Shown here piece by piece: positions 37,629 through 48,398 of a stretch of 64,000 bases of DNA. The translations under genes and the position numbers were made by a program. The DNA lies in the NCBI RefSeq assembly GCF_000023025.1, contig NC_012997.1:5074501-5138500 (forward strand). Reading direction: 5' to 3'. The notes beneath the pieces were generated by a model. It was not told the origin of the DNA. It saw only the letters and a list, made by a program, of their open reading frames with translations, and did no database searches. Position 1 is the first letter of the stretch. Each line of letters begins with the position of its first letter. The DNA is from Teredinibacter turnerae T7901. GTDB lineage: Bacteria; Pseudomonadota; Gammaproteobacteria; Pseudomonadales; Cellvibrionaceae.

Positions 37629-38132
37629 TCAGTGACTGTTTTGCGGCACAGAGAAGCTGATGACGCGGGTGCCGTCGGCGCGCTGGGTGACTGGCGATGA
37701 AGTTGCTTTCTGTACCGATGCCGATGTTGACTTGCCATCCCCAGCAACAACCATCAGCCCAACAACTCGGCTAAGTGACTCGGCCTGCTGCTCGTGCGTC
37801 TTGGAGCGTGCAAGAAACTGCAGGCGATATTGCCCGGGAGCCGACGCCCTCACTAACAGTTCCAAGGGCGCGTCGCCTTCACTGATAACCCACTGGGTCG
37901 ACGTTGAAAGCACCTCGAGCCCGTTGCTTTTCAGCAACACCAGCTGAAGGGATTCGCCGGGCCTGGCTGGCGCAAAGGGCAACACCAGGGTCTGCACATC
38001 GGCCACCGCAACATGAAATGTTTGTGGCCCCGCAGCGATAACATCAGCGCCGGGCTTAACGGTGCTCTGCGCCCCAATCGCCAGCGGTGAGCAGGCGCAA
38101 ATGCACGCGAGAGCTAAATGTTTTATGGTCAT
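37629..38132 (-). CDS. Secreted protein of unknown function
   Basis: 167 residues with a signal peptide (LALACICACSPLAIGA). The middle alternates hydrophobic strands (LVLPFAPARPGESLQLVLLKS, YRLQFLARS) and may be a beta-sandwich; the tail is Ser/Thr-rich. I do not recognise the family. It is 35 bp downstream of the metalloprotease-like lipoprotein and likely co-transcribed with it, so it could be a chaperone or partner for it (inference). Confidence 0.6.
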   Translation of the reverse strand: MTIKHLALACICACSPLAIGAQSTVKPGADVIAAGPQTFHVAVADVQTLVLPFAPARPGESLQLVLLKSNGLEVLSTSTQWVISEGDAPLELLVRASAPGQYRLQFLARSKTHEQQAESLSRVVGLMVVAGDGKSTSASVQKATSSPVTQRADGTRVISFSVPQNSH

Positions 38133-38167
38133 GATTCAGTACCTGATAACGTCAGCGGGCCGAGCCC

Positions 38168-39877
38168 TTAAAGTAGTCGCACTTGGAAACAACTATTTCC
38201 ACCGGTGAGAGGGTCCTCGTCCATATTGTTGTAGTCGTTTATTTCAAGCACATAATCGCCGGGCTCAAGCGTCATACTCGCGGACTCCAGGTTTTCTGAC
38301 GGCGACACCAGGCTTTGTACCAGAACGCCATTTTTGTACAGGTAGGCATCCGGGTCGGTACTGGTCGGGCCTGACTGACGGGTCAAAATGATCTGGCGCA
38401 ACTGGCGCTGTTGCAACGAAAACTGTAAGTACCGCGTGGTTCCCAACGCGTTGTACTCACCCAGCTTGTTGGAACTACACGCCGTAACCGGCGACCCGCC
38501 CAAAGCGAGATAAATGGGTAACACCGTACTCACACTGCCGTTGTTCGTCTCGCCAACGCCATATACCCCAGTACCAAAAACCTGCTCCCTCGCGAGCATG
38601 CTAGCTAACGGCGTTTGCACCCCGGACACCTGTCCGTTCAGTGCGTTGGCAAAGAGATAGATACTCGCAAACGCGCTATTGTCGGTAAAATCCGAGTCCG
38701 CTATTGCATCGATGATCGGCGCAATCCCCAGGCTAAGGCTGTCGCCAGACTCATTCGTTTCGTCGTACAGGTCATAGAGTATTTTGGCGATGGAATTTTC
38801 ACTGTACCAACCGGCAACAGTCAGGCTGTTTTCCTCAAAGCTGATGGCATAGCCGTCCTGCTGGCCAACGCCCTGCGAATCGGAATAAATACCTGCACCG
38901 TTAAGAATTGCCGCAAAACCATTCGCCAGGCCCTCGCTGAATGCCACCCGCATATCCAATTTACTTATCAGGCTGTGGCCGCCGCCGATGCTGTCTGAAC
39001 GACTCAGTACATCTTCGACAAAATGCATAAACTCGTGTTGGAGCACGCTGTAGTCGTATTCGTCCGTATCGCCATCTGCATCACCGAGAATAAATATCGC
39101 TTTCTGCGCAGGGTCGTAATAGGTCGTACCCAGGTCCCCGTTTTCATTCTGCCCTTGCACCGTGTTGTTGCGATAACTCCAGTTCAGAGTGCAATCGGGC
39201 ATAGTGAAGCCGGGCAGCGCCTGGGCAAGCGTGTCAGTCGCCTCGTAGATGGCATCGAGGATGGCAAAGGGCGCCGCCGGGCGCTGTGTGATGTCGTTAT
39301 AGTCATCGATCCCCAGATTCCAGCCCGAGGGCGCGTGTAGATTGCGCACCGAGTTATCACTGCCGCTGGCTGCAATTGGCCCAGCAATACTGTATAGCGC
39401 CCCATTGCTGGTGTTATCCACAACCTCAAAGTGCCACTGGTAATCGTCGGTACGTACCATAACGGCATCCACCGCAACCCGGACATTGGTTTCACTGGGG
39501 GTTTCAAGCTGATAGTTGCCGTCGTTATCGGTGACCGCAGTCGCCAGCACCCGGTCAGCGCTATCAAGCAGCACCACCTGAACATTGCGAGCGGGTAAAA
39601 CCTGTGTGTCCGCGTAGTCCAAGCTGCCCATAGCGGTGTGGGGCACGCGATCAAATGTAATTCGACCAGAAATAGTCTGCCCACTGATGGTAGGTGTGGG
39701 TGTCGGGCTGGAGGAGGGCGTTGGCGTAACTGAGGGTGTGGGTGTTGCTGAGGGTGCCATCGAAGGCGTTGGCGTCACCCCCGGGGTGGGGTTGGTGCCA
39801 GGCGAATTATCACTGCCGCCATTGGAACAGGCCGAACAAAGAAAGCCCAGCCACAAACATAAAACAAAGGTGCGCAA
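38168..39877 (-). CDS. Lipoprotein with predicted zinc metallopeptidase domain
   Basis: 569 residues. Lipobox CSAC near residue 17, a Pro/Thr/Ser linker (about residues 30-65), then a carboxypeptidase-regulatory-like beta domain, and a catalytic-like region with H281-E-F-M-H285 and a downstream Glu in AFSEGLANGF, the gluzincin pattern. The C-terminal 110 residues look like a pre-peptidase C-terminal beta domain (LEPGDYVLEINDYNNMDEDP). The start is TTG 39877 with GGAG 6 nt before it. It probably is an outer-membrane-anchored protease; substrate unknown. Confidence 0.65.
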   Translation of the reverse strand: MRTFVLCLWLGFLCSACSNGGSDNSPGTNPTPGVTPTPSMAPSATPTPSVTPTPSSSPTPTPTISGQTISGRITFDRVPHTAMGSLDYADTQVLPARNVQVVLLDSADRVLATAVTDNDGNYQLETPSETNVRVAVDAVMVRTDDYQWHFEVVDNTSNGALYSIAGPIAASGSDNSVRNLHAPSGWNLGIDDYNDITQRPAAPFAILDAIYEATDTLAQALPGFTMPDCTLNWSYRNNTVQGQNENGDLGTTYYDPAQKAIFILGDADGDTDEYDYSVLQHEFMHFVEDVLSRSDSIGGGHSLISKLDMRVAFSEGLANGFAAILNGAGIYSDSQGVGQQDGYAISFEENSLTVAGWYSENSIAKILYDLYDETNESGDSLSLGIAPIIDAIADSDFTDNSAFASIYLFANALNGQVSGVQTPLASMLAREQVFGTGVYGVGETNNGSVSTVLPIYLALGGSPVTACSSNKLGEYNALGTTRYLQFSLQQRQLRQIILTRQSGPTSTDPDAYLYKNGVLVQSLVSPSENLESASMTLEPGDYVLEINDYNNMDEDPLTGGNSCFQVRLL

Positions 39878-40033: not shown

Positions 40034-40801
40034 TTATTTTTCTGGCAGTCGAGCAACCAACAAAAATTCCCGATTGCCATCCCCGCCCTCAATCGGACTT
40101 GGGAAATAGGCGCAAACGTCAAACCCCAACTCATTGCAGTGGCTTTCCAGTTTTTTCTGTACCTGTGGGTATAGCGTGTCATCGGTGACAATCCCGTTTT
40201 TGCCCAGCCCGTCACGCCCCACCTCAAACTGGGGCTTCACTAAACTCACCAGCCAGCCGCCAGGGCTCAACACAGCGGGCAAACGCGGCAAAATTAAGTG
40301 CTGGGAAATAAAAGACACATCCATAACCGTAATTTGGAAGCCTCTCCGCGCAAACTCGGGAAGATCAGCCAATGCAAGATGACGGGCATTAAACGATTCA
40401 ATGCAGGTTACCCGCGCGTCTGCACGAAGCGCCGGCACCAGTTGCTCTCGCCCCACCTCAAGCCCGACCACATGCGCAGCACCGCGTCGCAACAGGCAAT
40501 CGGTAAACCCCCCGGTGGACTGGCCGACATCCAGCGCAAGCATCCCGCTCACATCAATTTGGTGTTCTTCCAACGCGTGTTCCAGCTTCAAACCCGCGCG
40601 CGAAGCAAAACGTTGTTCGTCGCTGACTTCTACCAGAAACTCGCTATCGTCCGGGTATTTTTCAGAGGGCTTGCGAACCAGGGTTGCCACTGTACCAAGC
40701 AGCACTTTGACCTTGCCTGCAGCAATTAATTTTTGGGCTTCAGTGCGCGATCTGACAAGGCCAGCTTTTGCCAGTAGCGTATCGCTGCGTGAGGTGCTCA
40801 C
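40034..40801 (-). CDS. tlyA: TlyA-family RNA 2'-O-methyltransferase
   Basis: 255 residues: an N-terminal S4 RNA-binding domain (DTLLAKAGLVRSRTEAQKLI) and an FtsJ-like methyltransferase with LDVGQSTGGFTDCLL and VLSPGGWLVSLVKPQFE. Family members methylate 16S and 23S rRNA and were earlier called hemolysins. The start is GTG 40801 with GGAG upstream; the frame extends beyond. Its 5' side faces the receptor terminator. Confidence 0.88.
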   Translation of the reverse strand: MSTSRSDTLLAKAGLVRSRTEAQKLIAAGKVKVLLGTVATLVRKPSEKYPDDSEFLVEVSDEQRFASRAGLKLEHALEEHQIDVSGMLALDVGQSTGGFTDCLLRRGAAHVVGLEVGREQLVPALRADARVTCIESFNARHLALADLPEFARRGFQITVMDVSFISQHLILPRLPAVLSPGGWLVSLVKPQFEVGRDGLGKNGIVTDDTLYPQVQKKLESHCNELGFDVCAYFPSPIEGGDGNREFLLVARLPEK

Positions 40802-40882
40802 TGGAAATGCTCCGCGAGAGTATAAAACGAGGTTATGAGTACAGCAGGAAAATTGGGTGAAACTAGTGATATAGAAGAGATA

Positions 40883-40910
40883 CCCCACCGCCGTCAGACT
40901 GACGGTGGGG
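40883..40910 (-). terminator. Hairpin terminator after the TonB-dependent receptor
   Basis: CCCCAC and CGTCAG pair with CTGACG and GTGGGG around a 1-nt loop and 3-nt bulge, directly 8 bp past the receptor stop on the minus strand. T-tract weak. Confidence 0.55.
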
Positions 40911-40918
40911 TAGAGGCG

Positions 40919-43900
40919 TTACTCAGCAGGCTTTTCAGTCAGACTAACATCATCGATGTAGTATGTAGCAGCGACAGCGCCAAGATCGAGAACCATACTG
41001 GTTTTAACGTCATCGGCTGCAAATTCAAAGCTGACTTCTGTCCAATCTGTACCTACAGTTTGCAGGCCCTGATATTGGGCAACATCGATATCAGTTTTGG
41101 TTGAAAAGCGTACCTGTCCACCCGCGGCAGCAGCTTTTACCCACATACTAGCGACATACGTTGTACCCACAACAGTGTCGGCACGTGCGCTAGTAACCTG
41201 CACATCCCACTCGTTACCTCCTGCAGCAACAGCCTGCAGAGCACGACTTCCACCATGTACTTCCGCTGCTGTCGCTGACACGCCAGAAGCCCCGTTTTCC
41301 ACCGTCCAATCGGTGAATGCGTCGCCATCACCGCTCTCGAACCCGCCATTGCTCAGCAGGTTGGTTGGGCCAGCACTTCCGCCGTCGGTATGAGGACAGC
41401 TGCTTGGATCAGGCTCCAAACCAGGGACAATTTTAACATCGTCAATAAGGTAGGTGGTTGCAGATGCGCCAAGATCCAATACCAATTGCGTCGCATCACT
41501 GTTAGGTTGGAAATTCCATACTACTTGCTGCCAGCTTGTTCCAATTACGTTGTCACCACCGTACTGCGCTCCGTTAAGAGCACTGGTCGAGAAACGCATG
41601 GTAGCATCAGCGACAGAACTTTTGATCCACATGGTCGCGGTGTAGTCTGCGCCGATAGTTGTATCAAATTCTGGGCTCGACACCTGAACGCTCCAGGGGT
41701 CGCCACCGGCAGACACAGCCTGCATACCACGACCGGCACAAGTATCGCTGGTCACCGCAGTAATGGTGTCAGCACTATTTAATTTGGACCACCCAGTAAA
41801 ATCGTCCCCTGAGCCATCCAAGTTAAAGCTAGGCAGAAACAGCTTAAAGTCGTTTTTAGCGCTGGTCGGCAGTGCGGCACCATTACCAAACGCCCGATCC
41901 TCCGAGGACAGGTAAGCGTTGGCTTCATCAACCCAAGGGTTGTTGGCTAGTGCAGTGTCGACGTCAGGGAAAACGCCCTCGTCAACCTGGCGCTGCATTT
42001 CGGCCATCACCACATCGTTAGTGAGCGGCAAGCTGATGCCCGCTGGCGGATAACGCGCTGGCGCCAGATCAGGATAAACTACAGAACCGTCTGATTGTCG
42101 ATCCAATTCAACATAGCGGATACCAACGTTACCGCTAAATCGGATATCACCGTCACTGGCAAAATCCAACCGCGTATAGAATGCTCGGTTTTCTTCACGG
42201 GTGTAGCTGATTTCACCTGGCCAGAACATACCGTATTTATCGTCTACGCCGTACCGGTTAGCGTAACGACCAGGATCTTGGTCTTCAGCAGTACCGATGC
42301 TGTTCCAATCGCCCGCCGTCGAGCCAATGAGCTCTCGCTTATAATCGCGAACTGCGCGAACGAATTCTTCAGAGGCATGCAAAGTTTTGTTGCCAGGAAT
42401 ATTAACCACTCCACCACCGTGGAAATCGGACCAATCCACCAGTTCCAAATCACCCAGTTGATCCGCGTAACGATCTTCCAGCACCCAGGCTGCAGTCGTC
42501 GAACCAGACCATTCAGGGCCTACTGCTTTCCAGTTCCAGGAAGTGCGTCGCACAAGCTGCTCACGGTCGGAGGCGCGAATACCAGCTTTAATCGAAGTAA
42601 CAAAGCTATTGTCAAAGTGGTAGGTTAGGTCGAAGCGCGCAGCAGCGAGCTTACCTTCGGAACGCTCGTAGTGCTCCATCGCCGAACGCCAAAAGTAGTT
42701 GTTGTAGTCCTGGAAGTAGTCTGCATCGCCTGGCTGAGAGTATTCAGTACCGGTATTGGTGCTGAAACCTGCGGTGTAATCACCACCAGGAGCGTAGGCG
42801 TCTGGGTCTGCATCACGCGCACCGAACCAGGGGTCGACCAAATTCAGTGTCGGGGTATCACCCAGATAGTATTCTTCACCAGCAAACGAACCAGTGTGAA
42901 TAACCAGATCATCTTGCTCAGTATCGGCTTGGATGTACTGGTAATCACCGCTCAATTCCAGGTTGTCGGTGACGTTCCAAGAAATGTTGAGGGAGAAATC
43001 TTCAACCAGGTTGTCGGTATCAACTACTCGGCTGTCAAATTGCAACTTCTGCCCGAACTGTGGATAAGCGTCGCCAACATCGCCTTGCGATGGGATGTGA
43101 TCGCTATTACCGCCATCTGCTATCCAGTTCACGTACTGCAACGCGCCGCCCTGAAACAGCCCATTGTCGTCAAACTCAATGGTGGTGCCTTCTTTGGCAG
43201 TAGAGCGTATATCGTCAATATCTTCTGGGTACGAACCCTGGTACTTAATAGCGTTTTCATGCCATGACAAAGTAGAGTCGGAACGGAAGTACTCACCTGT
43301 CACCTCGACAGCGCCAGTTGGGTCCGCCCACTGAATCACAGCTGATGCGCCCTGACGCTTGCGGTCATCCGCCTTTTTCAGCGCGTTCGCAGAGTTTGGC
43401 ATCCAAACATATGCAGTTTCATCGGGTTCATCTGGGTTTTGGAAGCGCTCGCCACCAGGGATAGAAGATGCGCGGTAGCGAACGTAAGCGTCTGACTGGA
43501 TACCGTGAGTCTCACCGTACAATTCTGAGTTGGCGTAGCTCACCAACAAACCAAACTCACCCAGGCTGGTGTCCCAGCGGTCGCTATACAAACCAGAGAA
43601 GGTAGGGCTCCACTCTTCGGCGATATCACCATAGGAGTAGTCCAGGGTAAACGCCATTTTGCGCCCGTCCTGGTCGAACGGCTTACGGGTTTTCAGGCTG
43701 ATCGTGCCGCCGATACCGCCTTCGATCATGTCAGCCGTTTGGTTCTTATAAATATCTACGCCACCCATCAACTCAGGGGAAACGTCTTGGAAGTTCAAAC
43801 CACGACCAGAGTTCGCGGTAAACGAATCACGGCCGTTGAACTCGGAGCGGGTCTGGGTCATACCACGGATGATTGCGCCGGAACCTTCCACACTGAAGTG

Positions 43901-44227
43901 GTCGGGGTCGTCTGGGCCCGCGAAACGTTCAACAGATACACCAGGCATACGCTGGATGGCTTCCAGAACACTTCGGTCGGGTAATGCGCCAATGTCTTCT
44001 GCAGAGATTGCGTCGACCACGGTGTCCGCTTCACGCTTGATGTCCTGGGCATTTTGCAAGTTAACCCGGGTACCCGTAACGATGACCTGCTCCTCTAGCA
44101 GACTACCGCTGTTGTTCTCTTCCTCTTGGGCTATAGCGTGGGAAGCCAAAGAGCCTAGAAGCACCACCAGCGATGACGCCAGAGAAATGCCCGATTTAGC
44201 ACTCATAGTTTTAATTCTAGTTGCCAT
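40919..44227 (-). CDS. TonB-dependent receptor fused to two carbohydrate-binding-like domains
   Basis: 1102 residues. Signal peptide (LASSLVVLLGSLASHAIAQ), TonB-box-like EEQVIVTG, plug (about 45-190, ALPDRSVLEAIQRMPGVSVE), and barrel strands to about residue 796, of the Xanthomonas/Caulobacter-type receptors. At FLPSFNL (797-803), where relatives continue with about 200-270 more barrel residues, the sequence becomes a jelly-roll domain (about 797-936). A second, similar copy (956-1098) follows, and the protein ends. Both copies share the pattern DGSGDDFTGW / SGDGDAFTDW and end YxIDDV, typical of CBM4/9-like modules. It sits beside xylA and should bind or import xylo-oligosaccharides, but the barrel looks incomplete. 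Confidence 0.75.
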   Translation of the reverse strand: MATRIKTMSAKSGISLASSLVVLLGSLASHAIAQEEENNSGSLLEEQVIVTGTRVNLQNAQDIKREADTVVDAISAEDIGALPDRSVLEAIQRMPGVSVERFAGPDDPDHFSVEGSGAIIRGMTQTRSEFNGRDSFTANSGRGLNFQDVSPELMGGVDIYKNQTADMIEGGIGGTISLKTRKPFDQDGRKMAFTLDYSYGDIAEEWSPTFSGLYSDRWDTSLGEFGLLVSYANSELYGETHGIQSDAYVRYRASSIPGGERFQNPDEPDETAYVWMPNSANALKKADDRKRQGASAVIQWADPTGAVEVTGEYFRSDSTLSWHENAIKYQGSYPEDIDDIRSTAKEGTTIEFDDNGLFQGGALQYVNWIADGGNSDHIPSQGDVGDAYPQFGQKLQFDSRVVDTDNLVEDFSLNISWNVTDNLELSGDYQYIQADTEQDDLVIHTGSFAGEEYYLGDTPTLNLVDPWFGARDADPDAYAPGGDYTAGFSTNTGTEYSQPGDADYFQDYNNYFWRSAMEHYERSEGKLAAARFDLTYHFDNSFVTSIKAGIRASDREQLVRRTSWNWKAVGPEWSGSTTAAWVLEDRYADQLGDLELVDWSDFHGGGVVNIPGNKTLHASEEFVRAVRDYKRELIGSTAGDWNSIGTAEDQDPGRYANRYGVDDKYGMFWPGEISYTREENRAFYTRLDFASDGDIRFSGNVGIRYVELDRQSDGSVVYPDLAPARYPPAGISLPLTNDVVMAEMQRQVDEGVFPDVDTALANNPWVDEANAYLSSEDRAFGNGAALPTSAKNDFKLFLPSFNLDGSGDDFTGWSKLNSADTITAVTSDTCAGRGMQAVSAGGDPWSVQVSSPEFDTTIGADYTATMWIKSSVADATMRFSTSALNGAQYGGDNVIGTSWQQVVWNFQPNSDATQLVLDLGASATTYLIDDVKIVPGLEPDPSSCPHTDGGSAGPTNLLSNGGFESGDGDAFTDWTVENGASGVSATAAEVHGGSRALQAVAAGGNEWDVQVTSARADTVVGTTYVASMWVKAAAAGGQVRFSTKTDIDVAQYQGLQTVGTDWTEVSFEFAADDVKTSMVLDLGAVAATYYIDDVSLTEKPAE

Positions 44228-44585: not shown

Positions 44586-45920
44586 TTAACGAATGTACTG
44601 GTTGATAATCAACTCGTACAATTCTTGTTTACCACTGGTAACAGGTGGTTCGCCAGCGGCGTTACCGATTTCTGCCAATTGCTCCAAAGTCAGGCTGCCT
44701 GCTTCGAAGTCTGCACCCTTGCCAGAATCGAAGGTAGCGTAACGATCAGCACGCATTTTCTCGATAGGTGAGTTTTGCAGCAGGTTGTCAGCGATCATCA
44801 GGGCGCGAGCAAATGTATCCATACCGGAAATGTGACCGTAGAACAGGTCTTCCATATCGGTAGAGTTACGGCGAGCTTTCGCGTCGAAGTTAACACCACC
44901 ACCCTGGAAGCCGCCAGCGCGCAGGATAACCAGCATCATTTCAACAGTTTCGTTGATGTTGATTGGGAACTGGTCGGTATCCCATGAGTTCTGGTAGTCG
45001 CCGCGGTTGGCATCGATGCTGCCCAGCATGCCCGCGTCTGCAGCAACCTGCAGTTCGTGATCCATGGAGTGCTGCGCCAGAGTCGCGTGGTTGGTTTCGA
45101 TGTTCAATTTGAAGTCTTTGTCCAGACCGTGCGCGCGCAGGAAGCCGATAACGGTTTCGCTGTCTACGTCGTACTGGTGCTTGGACGGCTCCATTGGTTT
45201 GGGCTCAATGAAGAAGGTACCTTTAAAGCCCTGCGCACGTGCGTAGTCACGAGCCATGGTCAGGAAGCGGGCCAGATGCTCTTTTTCACGCTTCTGGTCG
45301 GTATTCAGCATACTCATGTAACCTTCGCGGCCACCCCAGAATACGTAGTTTTCACCGTCCAGCGCGATAGTCGCGTCCAGCGCGTCTTTCAGCTGAGCAC
45401 CGGCGTAAGCGACAACGTTGAAATCTGGGTTAGTGGACGCACCGTTCATGAAACGCGGGTTGGTGAACAGGTTGGAGGTACCCCACAGCAGCTTAACGCC
45501 AGACGCCTTCTGCTTTTCTTTCAGTACTTCAACCATGGTCGCAACACGATCGCTGAATTCAGCACGCGTAGTACCAGCTTCTTCCACCACGTCCACATCG
45601 TGGAAGCAGTAGTAAGGGGTACCCAGTTTAGTGATGAACTCAAACGCTGCGTCCGCTTTTTTCTTAGCGCGGGTGATTGCGTCTGGGCCTTCAAACCAAG
45701 GGTGACGACGGGTACCAGGACCAAAGGGGTCGCCACTGGTGTCACAGAAAGTATGCCAGTAGCAGGTGGCAAACTTGAAGAATTCTTTCATGGTGCGACC
45801 GGCAACTACGCGGTTTTCGTCGTAGTATTTAAACGCCAGCGGGTTGTCAGATTCCGGACCTTCGTAGGCGATCTTGCCTACTGTGGGGAAATATTCTTTA
45901 TCACCGATTAATACACTCAT
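44586..45920 (-). CDS. xylA: Xylose isomerase
   Basis: 444 residues, full length for class II XylA. Catalytic and metal-binding segments are seen: [13 protein letters not shown] (catalytic His), [30 protein letters not shown] (metal Glu), [18 protein letters not shown] and [15 protein letters not shown]. It converts xylose to xylulose in the cytoplasm. It is last in the xylB - mutarotase - xylA operon (38 bp from the mutarotase), with AAAGGTAG before the start. Confidence 0.95.
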
Positions 45921-45958
45921 AACACACTACCTTTGCGCACGAATAACGTTATTGGAAA

Positions 45959-46894
45959 TTAAGGTTGGTTTATTAGTCGCACACCACACCGGGTGCGCAG
46001 GGTTTGTCCCGGTGTTAGGGTCAGCAACCCGTCACCGGTGTTAAATGCATTGATCCCGCAAGTCATAGGCTCAATCGCAATTGATTGACGATCTGGCGGA
46101 ATGCACACCTGAATAAAGTTGTAGCCTAATTCACCGGCATCCTGCCACACTTCGAGACCAACCTTGTCTGCGGGGGACCACAAACGGGTACTCACTCGAC
46201 GCGAGGATTTTACATCCAAAAGACGAAAACAGTGGTCAAACTGTCGCTCTGCGATAGCTGCGGGCTCATCATACGCATCAAAGCGGGCCATTTCACCCGT
46301 CGGCAACATACGCTCGTTTACCTGTGCCGCTTCCACAGTGGGTAACTGCAACAGCATATCGCTGACCGACGTCCCATCTATGCAGAAGTAGGGGTGCCAG
46401 CCCAGGCCAACCGGTACCGGCGCCGCATGACGGTTAGTCACCTCGAACTCCATCACCAGCGCATTTTCTTCGAGGGTGTAATGCATAACCACATCGGCCG
46501 CAAACGGGTAGCCCGCATAGCTGCCATCCACTGGATAGCGCAACGAGACTGACGCTTTACCAGCGCCGTTTTGCAGATTCTCTGCGGCAGCGGCGAGGGT
46601 GTACAGAAACCCGTGCAAATTGTTGTTGCGCTCGGTTTCGTTCACCACAAACTGATAGCGATCACCGTTGTGCTCGTACGCACCACCGTCCATTCGATTC
46701 AGTGACGGATAGAGCGCAACACCGCGATAATAGTTGTTGTTGACCATGGCAGCGCGATCAGGCAAACCCGCCACCAGGTCCACCGTTCGACCACCAAGTG
46801 TCAATTGCAAGCCATTGATAAGCCCGCCGAATTCGGGCACCAGCTCTAAACGGCTGGCACCTGCGGCCAGCTCAACCGCATTGTAATCTTTCAT
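45959..46894 (-). CDS. Aldose 1-epimerase (mutarotase) family protein
   Basis: 311 residues of the galactose-mutarotase fold: LVPEFGGLINGLQL, YRGVALYPSLNRMDGG, NLHGFLY (first catalytic His), LGWHPYFCI (second His), and FIQVCIPPDRQSIAIEPMT (Glu). It equilibrates the alpha and beta anomers, here most likely of xylose for XylA. ATG 46894 is 13 bp after the xylB stop; the frame extends upstream inside xylB but that start has no support. Confidence 0.88.
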   Translation of the reverse strand: MKDYNAVELAAGASRLELVPEFGGLINGLQLTLGGRTVDLVAGLPDRAAMVNNNYYRGVALYPSLNRMDGGAYEHNGDRYQFVVNETERNNNLHGFLYTLAAAAENLQNGAGKASVSLRYPVDGSYAGYPFAADVVMHYTLEENALVMEFEVTNRHAAPVPVGLGWHPYFCIDGTSVSDMLLQLPTVEAAQVNERMLPTGEMARFDAYDEPAAIAERQFDHCFRLLDVKSSRRVSTRLWSPADKVGLEVWQDAGELGYNFIQVCIPPDRQSIAIEPMTCGINAFNTGDGLLTLTPGQTLRTRCGVRLINQP

Positions 46895-46907
46895 GAATTC
46901 GCTCGAC

Positions 46908-48398
46908 TCAGTTGGCGACTGGCAAGGCCTCAACCCAGGCGCTGTAGGCATCCTGGTATTGGGCAATCAATGCCGGATTAGGTTCGATCACGCCGGTTTT
47001 AGTCAGACCAGCAAACGCTTCAGCCGGGCTGTTGTAAAAACCGCAACCCATGGCTGCTGCGCGCGCAGCGCCCTCTGCGCCGTCGGTTTCGTACTCTTCA
47101 ACCGCCGCCTGCGTGGTATTGGCGAACGCGTGTGCAAATACTGGACTGAGAAACATATTACCTTTGGCCACGCGGACCACTTCAGCGCTGCCACCCATGC
47201 TCTTGAGTACGTCAAAACCCTGGTTGAGGGCAAACACAATACCTTCCTGCACCGAACGCACCATATGTCCCAGGCCGTGACGGTTCAATTCCAGCTTGGT
47301 GAATTGGGCACCAATATTCCGGTTTTGGAAAATGCGTTCAGCGCCATTGCCAAACGGGTGGAAAATCAAACCTTCACTGCCAACCGGCACGGCTTCCGCC
47401 GCTTTGTTCAACACATTGTAGTCGACGGGAGTGCCATCGAGACTCAGAACCTGACGCAACCAGCTGAATGAACGGCCGGCGCCGTTTACGCACACCAAAA
47501 CGCCATTGCGTTTGGCTTCTTCGCTGTCAGTAACATGCAAAAAGGTATTTACACGCTGCTTTTCGTCAGACGCGGGCTGATCGATAACCCCGTAGATAAC
47601 CCCGGAGGTACCGGCCGTCGCGGCAACTTCGCCCGGCTGCAACACATTCAGGCTGAATGCGTTGTTGGGCTGATCACCACCGCGATAACAAATTTTTACG
47701 CCAGGTCGCAAGCCAAGCTCGGCTGCGGCGGCGGCGCTGACTTCGGACTGTTCGCCAATACTGGGCACCAGATCAGGAATAACGTCCGCGGAAATGCCCC
47801 AGTGGGCGAGAAGTTTGTCGGCGACTTTCTGGTCTTTAAAGTCCCACAGAGTGCCTTCGGACAAGCCCGATGCCGTCGAGTTGATCACACCAGAAAGTTT
47901 CATCGCGACATAGTCGCCGGGCAGCATGATTTTGTGCACGCGGGCAAAGGTTTCAGGTTCGTTTTCCTGCACCCAACGCAATTTCGCCGCAGTAAAATTA
48001 CCCGGAGAATTCAGCAGGTGACCGAAACAGTAGTCGTTACCCAGTTCGTTAAATGCTGCATCACCGTAGGGTACCGCGCGGCTGTCACACCAGATAATGG
48101 CAGGGCGCAGTACTTGTTGCTCGCTGTCGACCATCACTAGGCCATGCATTTGGTAGGAAATGCCAATGGCTTCGATTTTGCTCGCATCGACGTTATCTGC
48201 GCTGAACAGCTTCTTGCTGCCCTCGACGATACAGTTCCACCAAGTCTCTGGGTTCTGCTCCGCCCAACCGGATTGAGGACTGGCGATTTCCAGTTCGGTT
48301 TCCGGATATTGGGTGGAAGCCAGTGCTTTTCCGCTGTTGCCATCGAGCACAGAAAGCTTGACCGATGAACTGCCGACGTCGATTCCAAGAAATAACAT
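46908..48398 (-). CDS. xylB: Xylulokinase
   Basis: 496 residues, FGGY kinase family. N-terminal LFLGIDVGSSSVKLSVLDG phosphate loop, ISYQMHGLVMVD substrate region, AIIWCDSRAVPY, and the C-terminal GGSAEVVRVAKGNMFLSPVF. It phosphorylates xylulose to xylulose 5-phosphate. First gene of the xyl operon, with AGGG before the start, and divergent (438 bp) from the NrtR-like regulator gene, which may bind between them. Confidence 0.94.
   Translation of the reverse strand: MLFLGIDVGSSSVKLSVLDGNSGKALASTQYPETELEIASPQSGWAEQNPETWWNCIVEGSKKLFSADNVDASKIEAIGISYQMHGLVMVDSEQQVLRPAIIWCDSRAVPYGDAAFNELGNDYCFGHLLNSPGNFTAAKLRWVQENEPETFARVHKIMLPGDYVAMKLSGVINSTASGLSEGTLWDFKDQKVADKLLAHWGISADVIPDLVPSIGEQSEVSAAAAAELGLRPGVKICYRGGDQPNNAFSLNVLQPGEVAATAGTSGVIYGVIDQPASDEKQRVNTFLHVTDSEEAKRNGVLVCVNGAGRSFSWLRQVLSLDGTPVDYNVLNKAAEAVPVGSEGLIFHPFGNGAERIFQNRNIGAQFTKLELNRHGLGHMVRSVQEGIVFALNQGFDVLKSMGGSAEVVRVAKGNMFLSPVFAHAFANTTQAAVEEYETDGAEGAARAAAMGCGFYNSPAEAFAGLTKTGVIEPNPALIAQYQDAYSAWVEALPVAN

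What the first reader, a model, noticed from the sequence alone, without database searches (positions are those of the whole stretch)
40919..44227. TonB-dependent receptor whose barrel seems replaced at its C-terminus by two carbohydrate-binding-like domains
Seen: signal peptide, plug and barrel strands run to about residue 796 (FLPSFNL at 797-803), then two similar jelly-roll domains (797-936 and 956-1098) take over and the protein stops, followed within 8 bp by a hairpin terminator. Known: related receptors keep going after this motif for about 200-270 residues that close the 22-strand barrel and end with an aromatic residue. So the closing strands appear missing. Options: a surface glycan-binding protein built on a partial barrel, a recombination product with a xylanase-type binding module, a decayed gene, or an assembly join. 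Its place next to xylA suggests selection for xylan binding.
Basis: partly seen in the sequence, partly recalled or inferred. Interest (0 to 1): 0.8.

Follow-up and report, generated by a model that had tools for sequence, protein, structure and literature searches.

The report
Deletion-fused sugar receptor and sugar-binding protein
In this bacterium, very probably a wood-degrading shipworm symbiont, a 1.3-kilobase deletion has joined the first part of an outer-membrane sugar receptor to the tail of its neighbouring sugar-binding surface protein, so both are probably broken rather than merged into a new kind of receptor.

Summary
Window 40919-44227 (-) is an in-frame chimera. In the nearest held relative (G004, 94-96% identical DNA here) the same place holds two genes: a complete 1,139-residue TonB-dependent receptor and, 104 bp on, a 374-residue lipoprotein with two CBM4_9 domains. 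The window lacks 1,340 bp between them, joined at a codon boundary (41819|41818; residues 803|804). A search found the missing DNA nowhere else in the genome. The fusion keeps about 12 of 22 barrel strands and has lost the aromatic C-terminus and the lipoprotein signal. 68 of 70 receptor ORFs from other genomes run through the missing part; none of the relatives searched has the fusion. The window is very probably Teredinibacter turnerae T7901 (protein TERTU_4665). A paper on strain E7MBN lists the two proteins separately, both detected, with masses like G004's and unlike the fusion's. Most likely a recent deletion disabled both proteins. A functional fusion or a cloning/sequencing artefact is not excluded. 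Of wider interest is the intact partnership: this receptor type next to a lipoprotein whose recognised domains are only carbohydrate-binding modules, seen in several gammaproteobacteria.

The parts
40919..44227 (-). fusion ORF, 1,102 aa (receptor N-terminal part plus C-terminal part of the CBM lipoprotein)
41819..44227 (-). receptor part, residues 1-803: signal peptide (by eye), plug, about 12 of 22 barrel strands
41818..41819 (.). deletion junction; 1,340 bp present in relative G004 are absent between these two bases
40922..41818 (-). residues 804-1102: two CBM4_9 domains of the downstream lipoprotein, without its first 75 residues (signal, lipobox, linker and the start of its first CBM)
40883..40910 (-). 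imperfect inverted repeat (terminator-like hairpin) 8 bp after the stop codon
44586..45920 (-). xylose isomerase-like gene upstream (xylA), same order in G004; preceded by an aldose-epimerase gene (45959-46966) and an FGGY sugar-kinase gene (46908-48398)
   Evidence: Pfam; order; the published T7901 xylose isomerase is TERTU_4666, next in number to TERTU_4665
40760..42226 (.). tract of low divergence from G004 (1.4% against about 6% around it) that spans the junction

Best explanation
An ancestral gene pair (a TonB-dependent receptor of the TIGR01782 group and an outer-membrane lipoprotein with CBM4_9 domains, beside a xylose isomerase gene) lost 1,340 bp in this lineage: the receptor's last 336 codons and stop, the 104-bp spacer, and the lipoprotein's first 75 codons (signal, lipobox, linker, start of the first CBM). 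The two remaining pieces happen to be in frame (1 in 3 by chance). Shown: the deletion relative to G004 and its exact ends, no copy of the missing DNA found elsewhere in the genome, and the intact pair in relatives. Inferred: the product cannot close a 22-strand barrel, lacks the C-terminal aromatic signal used for outer-membrane insertion, and its CBMs are no longer lipid-anchored, so it most likely misfolds and is degraded, which makes the strain a natural double loss-of-function mutant for this pair. The event is probably recent, because both parts still look like genes under purifying selection.
For: Two separate genes at the same place in G004 with collinear flanks. Of 35 listed window ORFs lying inside the G004 stretches I fetched, 32 have a counterpart, and only this one matches two neighbouring genes end to end (19 further ORFs below window 19567 lie outside those stretches). 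Own genome: only the two flanks of the missing DNA hit; other barrel ends there are paralogues at 46% identity or less. Fusion in 1 of 8 held genus genomes. 68 of 70 receptor ORFs from 75 GTDB loci reach position 1100 or more of 1139, and 67 of 70 end in F, W or Y; none of the 75 matches goes past query residue 869 (which may leave out the own or very near genomes). AlphaFold: 12 barrel strands up to residue 806 in the fusion, 22 in an intact homologue by my reading. Foldseek: the 50 rows shown for the intact model are TonB-dependent receptors by title, best E 3e-27; the fusion's first receptor is at rank 39. dN/dS against G004: receptor part 0.0065/0.20, CBM part 0.0029/0.039. Strain E7MBN: separate receptor (125,860 Da) and carbohydrate-binding protein (38,393 Da), both assigned to the single T7901 protein TERTU_4665, both seen by LC-MS/MS (PMC12055684, passages); G004 masses 125,902 and 38,794, fusion 119,502.
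Against: No stop or frameshift in 1,102 codons and low dN/dS do not show decay; they fit a recent event or a used protein equally. Loss of function is not tested. The junction has no microhomology relative to G004, so the recombination mechanism is unexplained. G000 was not named by the tools; its identity with T7901 is inferred, and its length differs by 523 bp from the published one.
Confidence: 0.8

Rival explanations
1. The deletion is not in the organism but arose in cloning, gap closure or assembly of the reference genome; the strain has the normal two genes.
For: If G000 is T7901, its genome came mainly from Sanger clone libraries with manual gap closure (PMC2699552, passages); outer-membrane protein genes can be unstable in E. 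coli clones (recalled). The deletion rests on one assembly.
Against: No repeat at the junction that would cause an assembly collapse. Libraries of 3-4, 8-10 and 33-39 kb plus 454 reads, 21.2X. Of 32 window ORFs with a G004 counterpart this is the only one spanning two genes; the other length differences look like start choice, in-frame indels or stretch ends.
Confidence: 0.11
2. The fusion is a working protein kept by selection: the half barrel with plug, or a cleaved product, displays two xylan-binding domains at the cell surface.
For: In frame at a codon boundary; low dN/dS in both parts; upstream DNA and the hairpin after the stop are kept.
Against: About 12 of 22 strands; C-terminus TEKPAE; no lipobox; the first CBM lost its start. 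Most of the divergence behind the low dN/dS need not postdate the fusion. Polarised codon changes are few: G000 branch 3 nonsynonymous and 15-21 synonymous, G004 branch 0-1 and 21, the larger part unresolved. Not seen in relatives.
Confidence: 0.07
3. The fused form is ancestral and was split in the relatives.
For: None found.
Against: 68 of 70 receptor ORFs from other genomes run through the lost part, and G003, G004 and G005 have separate lipoproteins with their own lipobox (by eye).
Confidence: 0.01
4. The CBM tail was captured from a xylanase or another locus.
For: The CBMs resemble xylanase CBMs (1k42).
Against: The tail is 96-98% identical to the gene that stands next in G004, in the same order with the same flanks.
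Confidence: 0.01

Closest known systems
TonB-dependent receptors of NCBIfam TIGR01782 (TonB-Xanth-Caul); carbohydrate utilisation (CUT) loci of Xanthomonas and Caulobacter (PMC1790865, passages)
   Same: plug and first part of the barrel, 349.2 bits over a cut-off of 310; xylose-metabolism neighbours
   Different: profile positions 592-868 are missing; the C-terminal part is replaced
CBM4_9 (PF02018), e.g. Rhodothermus marinus xylanase CBM4-2 (1k42)
   Same: two stretches over the Pfam cut-off; sequence match of residues 990-1100 to 1k42 at E 7.6e-7
   Different: attached to a receptor fragment instead of an enzyme or lipoprotein; the first domain lacks its start
TERTU_4665 / C5BKF0 of T. turnerae T7901, and the pair E7_MBN_01277 + E7_MBN_01278 of strain E7MBN (PMC12055684, passages)
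   Same: very probably this very protein; listed in the order xylose isomerase, receptor, carbohydrate-binding protein
   Different: E7MBN has two separate proteins; in the passages I saw, the paper does not call T7901's single protein a deletion fusion
SusC/SusD and surface glycan-binding protein pairs of Bacteroidota (recalled)
   Same: the unfused pair would work like it in outline: transporter plus lipid-anchored glycan binder
   Different: the binder's recognised domains are CBM4_9 or CBM15; no SusD family in the Pfam results

Membership tests
TonB-dependent receptor (TIGR01782) | plug domain | tested here: met
   PF07715 at 64-175, 45.1 bits over 23.9
TonB-dependent receptor (TIGR01782) | family score above cut-off | tested here: met
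   349.2 over 310 bits, but only profile 2-591 of 868
TonB-dependent receptor (TIGR01782) | closed 22-strand barrel | tested here: not met
   12 barrel strands in the fusion model against 22 in an intact homologue, by my reading; no receptor in Foldseek rows 1-38
TonB-dependent receptor (TIGR01782) | C-terminal aromatic residue | tested here: not met
   ends TEKPAE; 67 of 70 homologue ORFs end in F, W or Y
TonB-dependent receptor (TIGR01782) | N-terminal signal peptide | tested here: inconclusive
   looks like one by eye; no predictor run
TonB-dependent receptor (TIGR01782) | TonB box and energised transport | not tested
   TonB box not examined; no assay
CBM4_9 domains | Pfam score above cut-off | tested here: met
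   53.9 bits over 25.9, two stretches; 64.6 in the intact G004 lipoprotein
CBM4_9 domains | glycan binding | not testable with these tools
   no binding assay; nearest solved relatives by sequence are xylanase CBMs
surface glycan-binding lipoprotein | N-terminal lipobox of its own | tested here: not met
   present by eye in G004 (LAAC, Cys 30); removed by the deletion in the window
SusC/SusD-type pair (the unfused arrangement in relatives) | receptor gene beside a glycan-binding lipoprotein gene | tested here: met
   G003, G004, G005 in the genus and at least 6 of 70 loci outside those (L073, L074, L076, L080, L082, L083); divergent genes in L080, L082, L083. In the window itself the pair is fused
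SusC/SusD-type pair (the unfused arrangement in relatives) | SusD-family partner | tested here: not met
   CBM families and no SusD family in the Pfam results for these lipoproteins

The most novel reading that the evidence does not exclude
The deletion created a functioning single-chain product: the receptor's signal, plug and half barrel carry two xylan-binding domains to the surface or into vesicles, a new way to display a glycan binder without a lipid anchor.
Probability: 0.04. Interest if true: 0.8.

Novelty: new member of a known kind. Interest (0 to 1): 0.3.

Why it matters
If the deletion is real and the strain is T7901, the reference strain of a shipworm symbiont is a natural mutant in a xylose-linked receptor and its sugar-binding partner, so uptake and secretome studies on it may not represent the species. 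It also warns against reading this annotation as a new receptor type. The intact pair in relatives is a testable gammaproteobacterial counterpart of the SusC/surface-binder arrangement.

Tried and rejected
Homology-driven recombination at the junction: local similarity of the two G004 breakpoint regions scores 15 against a null median of 12 and a 95% point of 19, so not above chance. One-sided (homology-facilitated) illegitimate recombination with the junction as the edge of an imported tract: the best low-divergence tract (42226-40760) spans the junction and fits about 7 log-likelihood units better than one starting at it, so I do not claim it. Papers on that process were seen in a search listing only.

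Relaxed selection after fusion: polarised counts are too small to decide.

Rows dropped: 5 of 75 GTDB loci had no receptor ORF after my overlap filter (L099, L109, L114, L120, L124) and are not in the counts of 70. Two of the 70 do not reach position 1100: L112 (its best alignment piece stops at 836, but the ORF is 1,193 aa and ends in F) and L127 (270-aa ORF). The list of 58 leaves out ORFs with X, short matches and near-duplicates; structure alignment A1 used 39 of these 58, cut at the residue matching 803, plus the window protein and one CBM stretch of L083; A2 used the same 39 whole. In the fusion model most of the plug is below pLDDT 50, so it says nothing about the plug.

The lipoprotein-pair count (at least 6 of 70) comes from four BLAST queries, not from a Pfam scan of all neighbours. 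Of the five lipobox-bearing neighbours outside the genus scanned, two (L054, L089) are enzymes (GH9, GH5), not CBM-only proteins. L074 also has a CBM27 score over the cut-off, and most of the L073 protein matches no Pfam family.

The insecticidal- and clostridial-toxin titles are, as I read them, generic jelly-roll matches. Against xylan induction: in E7MBN both proteins were seen on sucrose, cellulose and pectin but not on xylan. I first took the organism for Cellvibrio from hit titles; later evidence points to Teredinibacter. Literature: searches; one search found none. Passages only were seen of PMC4285296 (not used), PMC1790865, PMC12055684, PMC2699552, PMC11632262 and PMC10734418. No paper was read whole and no supplement was seen.

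Full report
What is there. The ORF at 40919-44227 (-), 1,102 aa, has a receptor plug (64-175) and two CBM_4_9 stretches, and no Pfam barrel match at E <= 1. The NCBIfam receptor model TIGR01782 covers residues 46-803 but only positions 2-591 of 868. Upstream lie genes for a xylose isomerase-like protein, an aldose 1-epimerase and an FGGY sugar kinase; downstream an S4/FtsJ-type methyltransferase.

What it is. In G004, the nearest held genome by this protein (98% identity over residues 1-812), the same place has a complete receptor of 1,139 aa ending MAFFVKGNF and, 104 bp downstream, a 374-aa protein with a lipobox (LAAC) and two CBM_4_9 domains. A global alignment of the window gene with that stretch has one gap, 1,340 bp, between window bases 41819 and 41818, on a codon boundary in both reading frames. 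The bases left and right of the gap match G004 for at least 45 and for 41 bases. No base is shared at the junction itself, and the similarity of the two breakpoint regions is not above chance. A DNA search found the missing piece nowhere else in the genome, only its two flanks. The genome's other receptors have only distant versions of the missing barrel end, at 46% identity or less.

How rare. Of 58 genomes searched with the whole protein, 24 match at E <= 1e-60, and only the own genome does so over the full length. The held genus has 8 genomes; only this one is fused. Among 75 loci from the GTDB collection no match goes past residue 869 (that tool may leave out the own and very near genomes). 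Of the 70 with a receptor ORF after my filter, 68 run to at least position 1100 of 1139 and 67 end in an aromatic residue. The 58 homologues listed all have LPS-[FLVA]-N at the point matching residue 803 and go on with receptor sequence where the window switches to the CBM.

Structure. The model of the fusion (41-row alignment; mean pLDDT 68, barrel blocks mostly 80-95, plug and CBM regions lower) has 12 long barrel strands between 190 and 806, then two jelly-roll regions of low to moderate confidence. The model of an intact homologue (L057, mean pLDDT 80) has 22 by my reading of the strand list: the same 12 and 10 more. The count after 806 merges short neighbouring segments and is mine. Foldseek against the PDB gives TonB-dependent receptors, by title, in the 50 rows shown for the intact model. 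For the fusion the top rows are proteins with jelly-roll domains, CBM4 entries among them, and the first receptor (TbpA-TbpB complex) is rank 39.

Age and selection. Between G000 and G004 the receptor part has dN 0.0065 and dS 0.20, xylA 0.0058 and 0.31, the downstream methyltransferase gene 0.025 and 0.19, the CBM part 0.0029 and 0.039. Polarised codon changes in the receptor part are few: G000 branch 3 nonsynonymous and 15-21 synonymous, G004 branch 0-1 and 21, with 61-68 changes unresolved. The CBM part lies in a tract of low divergence, best fit 42226-40760, that crosses the junction. Similar low tracts occur at 46059-45760 and 44109-43660, so exchange between these lineages seems common. 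The fusion may have come in with such a tract or arisen afterwards; one genome cannot tell.

Which organism. Its 5,193,164 bases in one contig are 523 more than the 5,192,641 published for Teredinibacter turnerae T7901 (PMC2699552, passages). It has a strong NifH-family match (437 bits; that family also rings in the 14 control genomes, so this is weak support), and the T7901 paper reports nitrogen-fixation genes. In T7901 the xylose isomerase is TERTU_4666. A 2025 secretome paper on T. turnerae E7MBN (PMC12055684, passages) lists in consecutive numbers a xylose isomerase of 49,800 Da (window protein 49,676), a receptor of 125,860 Da and a carbohydrate-binding protein of 38,393 Da. It states that the last two both match the single T7901 receptor TERTU_4665 (C5BKF0). 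G004's two proteins weigh 125,902 and 38,794, the fusion 119,502. So within the species one strain makes the two proteins separately, while T7901 has one. I take G000 to be T7901 with about 0.9 confidence. A search of the held library for TERTU_4665 gave only that paper; in the passages seen it does not remark on a deletion.

Real or artefact. T7901 was sequenced from three Sanger clone libraries plus 454 reads at 21.2X (passages). No repeat sits at the junction. Of 35 listed window ORFs inside the G004 stretches fetched, 32 have a counterpart, and this is the only one that spans two neighbouring genes. A real deletion is favoured; an artefact keeps about 0.1.

Mechanism. The receptor fragment should be exported by its signal peptide but cannot close its barrel and lacks the C-terminal aromatic signal used for insertion by the BAM machinery (established knowledge, recalled). 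The CBMs have lost their own lipoprotein signal, and the first CBM its start. The expected outcome is degradation of the product and loss of both activities. This last step is inferred, not shown.

The intact pair. The lipoprotein has two CBM_4_9 stretches in G004, three in G005 and four in G003, each behind the receptor. At E <= 1e-10 relatives of the lipoprotein were found in 6 of 100 family genomes, all in the genus, the own fusion included. Among the 70 GTDB receptor loci at least 6 have beside the receptor a protein whose Pfam matches over the cut-off are carbohydrate-binding modules: CBM15 in L073, L074 (also CBM27) and L076, CBM15 plus CBM_4_9 in L080 and L082, CBM_4_9 in L083. [quoted passage not shown] In outline this would work like a SusC/surface-binder pair, but no SusD family was found, so it is not filed as one.

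Verdict. A correct observation of an ordinary kind of event: a deletion-made gene fusion, most likely a double loss of function, in what is very probably a reference strain. Interest 0.3.

Noticed in passing
L073:3982-5673, L074:3983-5677, L076:3680-5533, L080:3859-5334, L082:4091-5668, L083:3559-5580; L045:6106-7230, L046:5580-7187, L048:5604-7631: Proteins whose Pfam matches over the cut-off are only carbohydrate-binding modules (CBM15, CBM27, CBM4_9) stand beside the same receptor family in several gammaproteobacterial genera, with 2 to 4 CBM4_9 copies within the window's genus: candidate non-SusD surface glycan binders.
   Followed up: partly
49 of 70 receptor loci among L054-L128: A gene with the motif GG-GWM of tryptophan halogenases (one example confirmed by Pfam, L055:9346-10857) stands next to the receptor; the motif was not found in the window or in the six genus stretches scanned.
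   Followed up: partly
window 38077-38781: The C-terminal half of the lipoprotein gene at 38168-39877 (HEFMH motif, no Pfam family over cut-off) is strongly diverged from G004 at DNA level while its N-terminal part is about 94% identical: a possible domain exchange two genes downstream.
   Followed up: no
window 45760-46059, 43660-44109 and 40760-42226: Short tracts of about 0.7-1.4% divergence from G004 in a background near 6%: looks like mosaic recombination between the two lineages.
   Followed up: partly
L049:1529-3460, L051:3081-4277, L052:2476-3669: CBM4_9 lipoproteins of the same family also occur in G007, G006 and G005 with no receptor ORF in the fetched 6.5-7 kb, with Ser-rich or PTAE-type linkers.
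   Followed up: no
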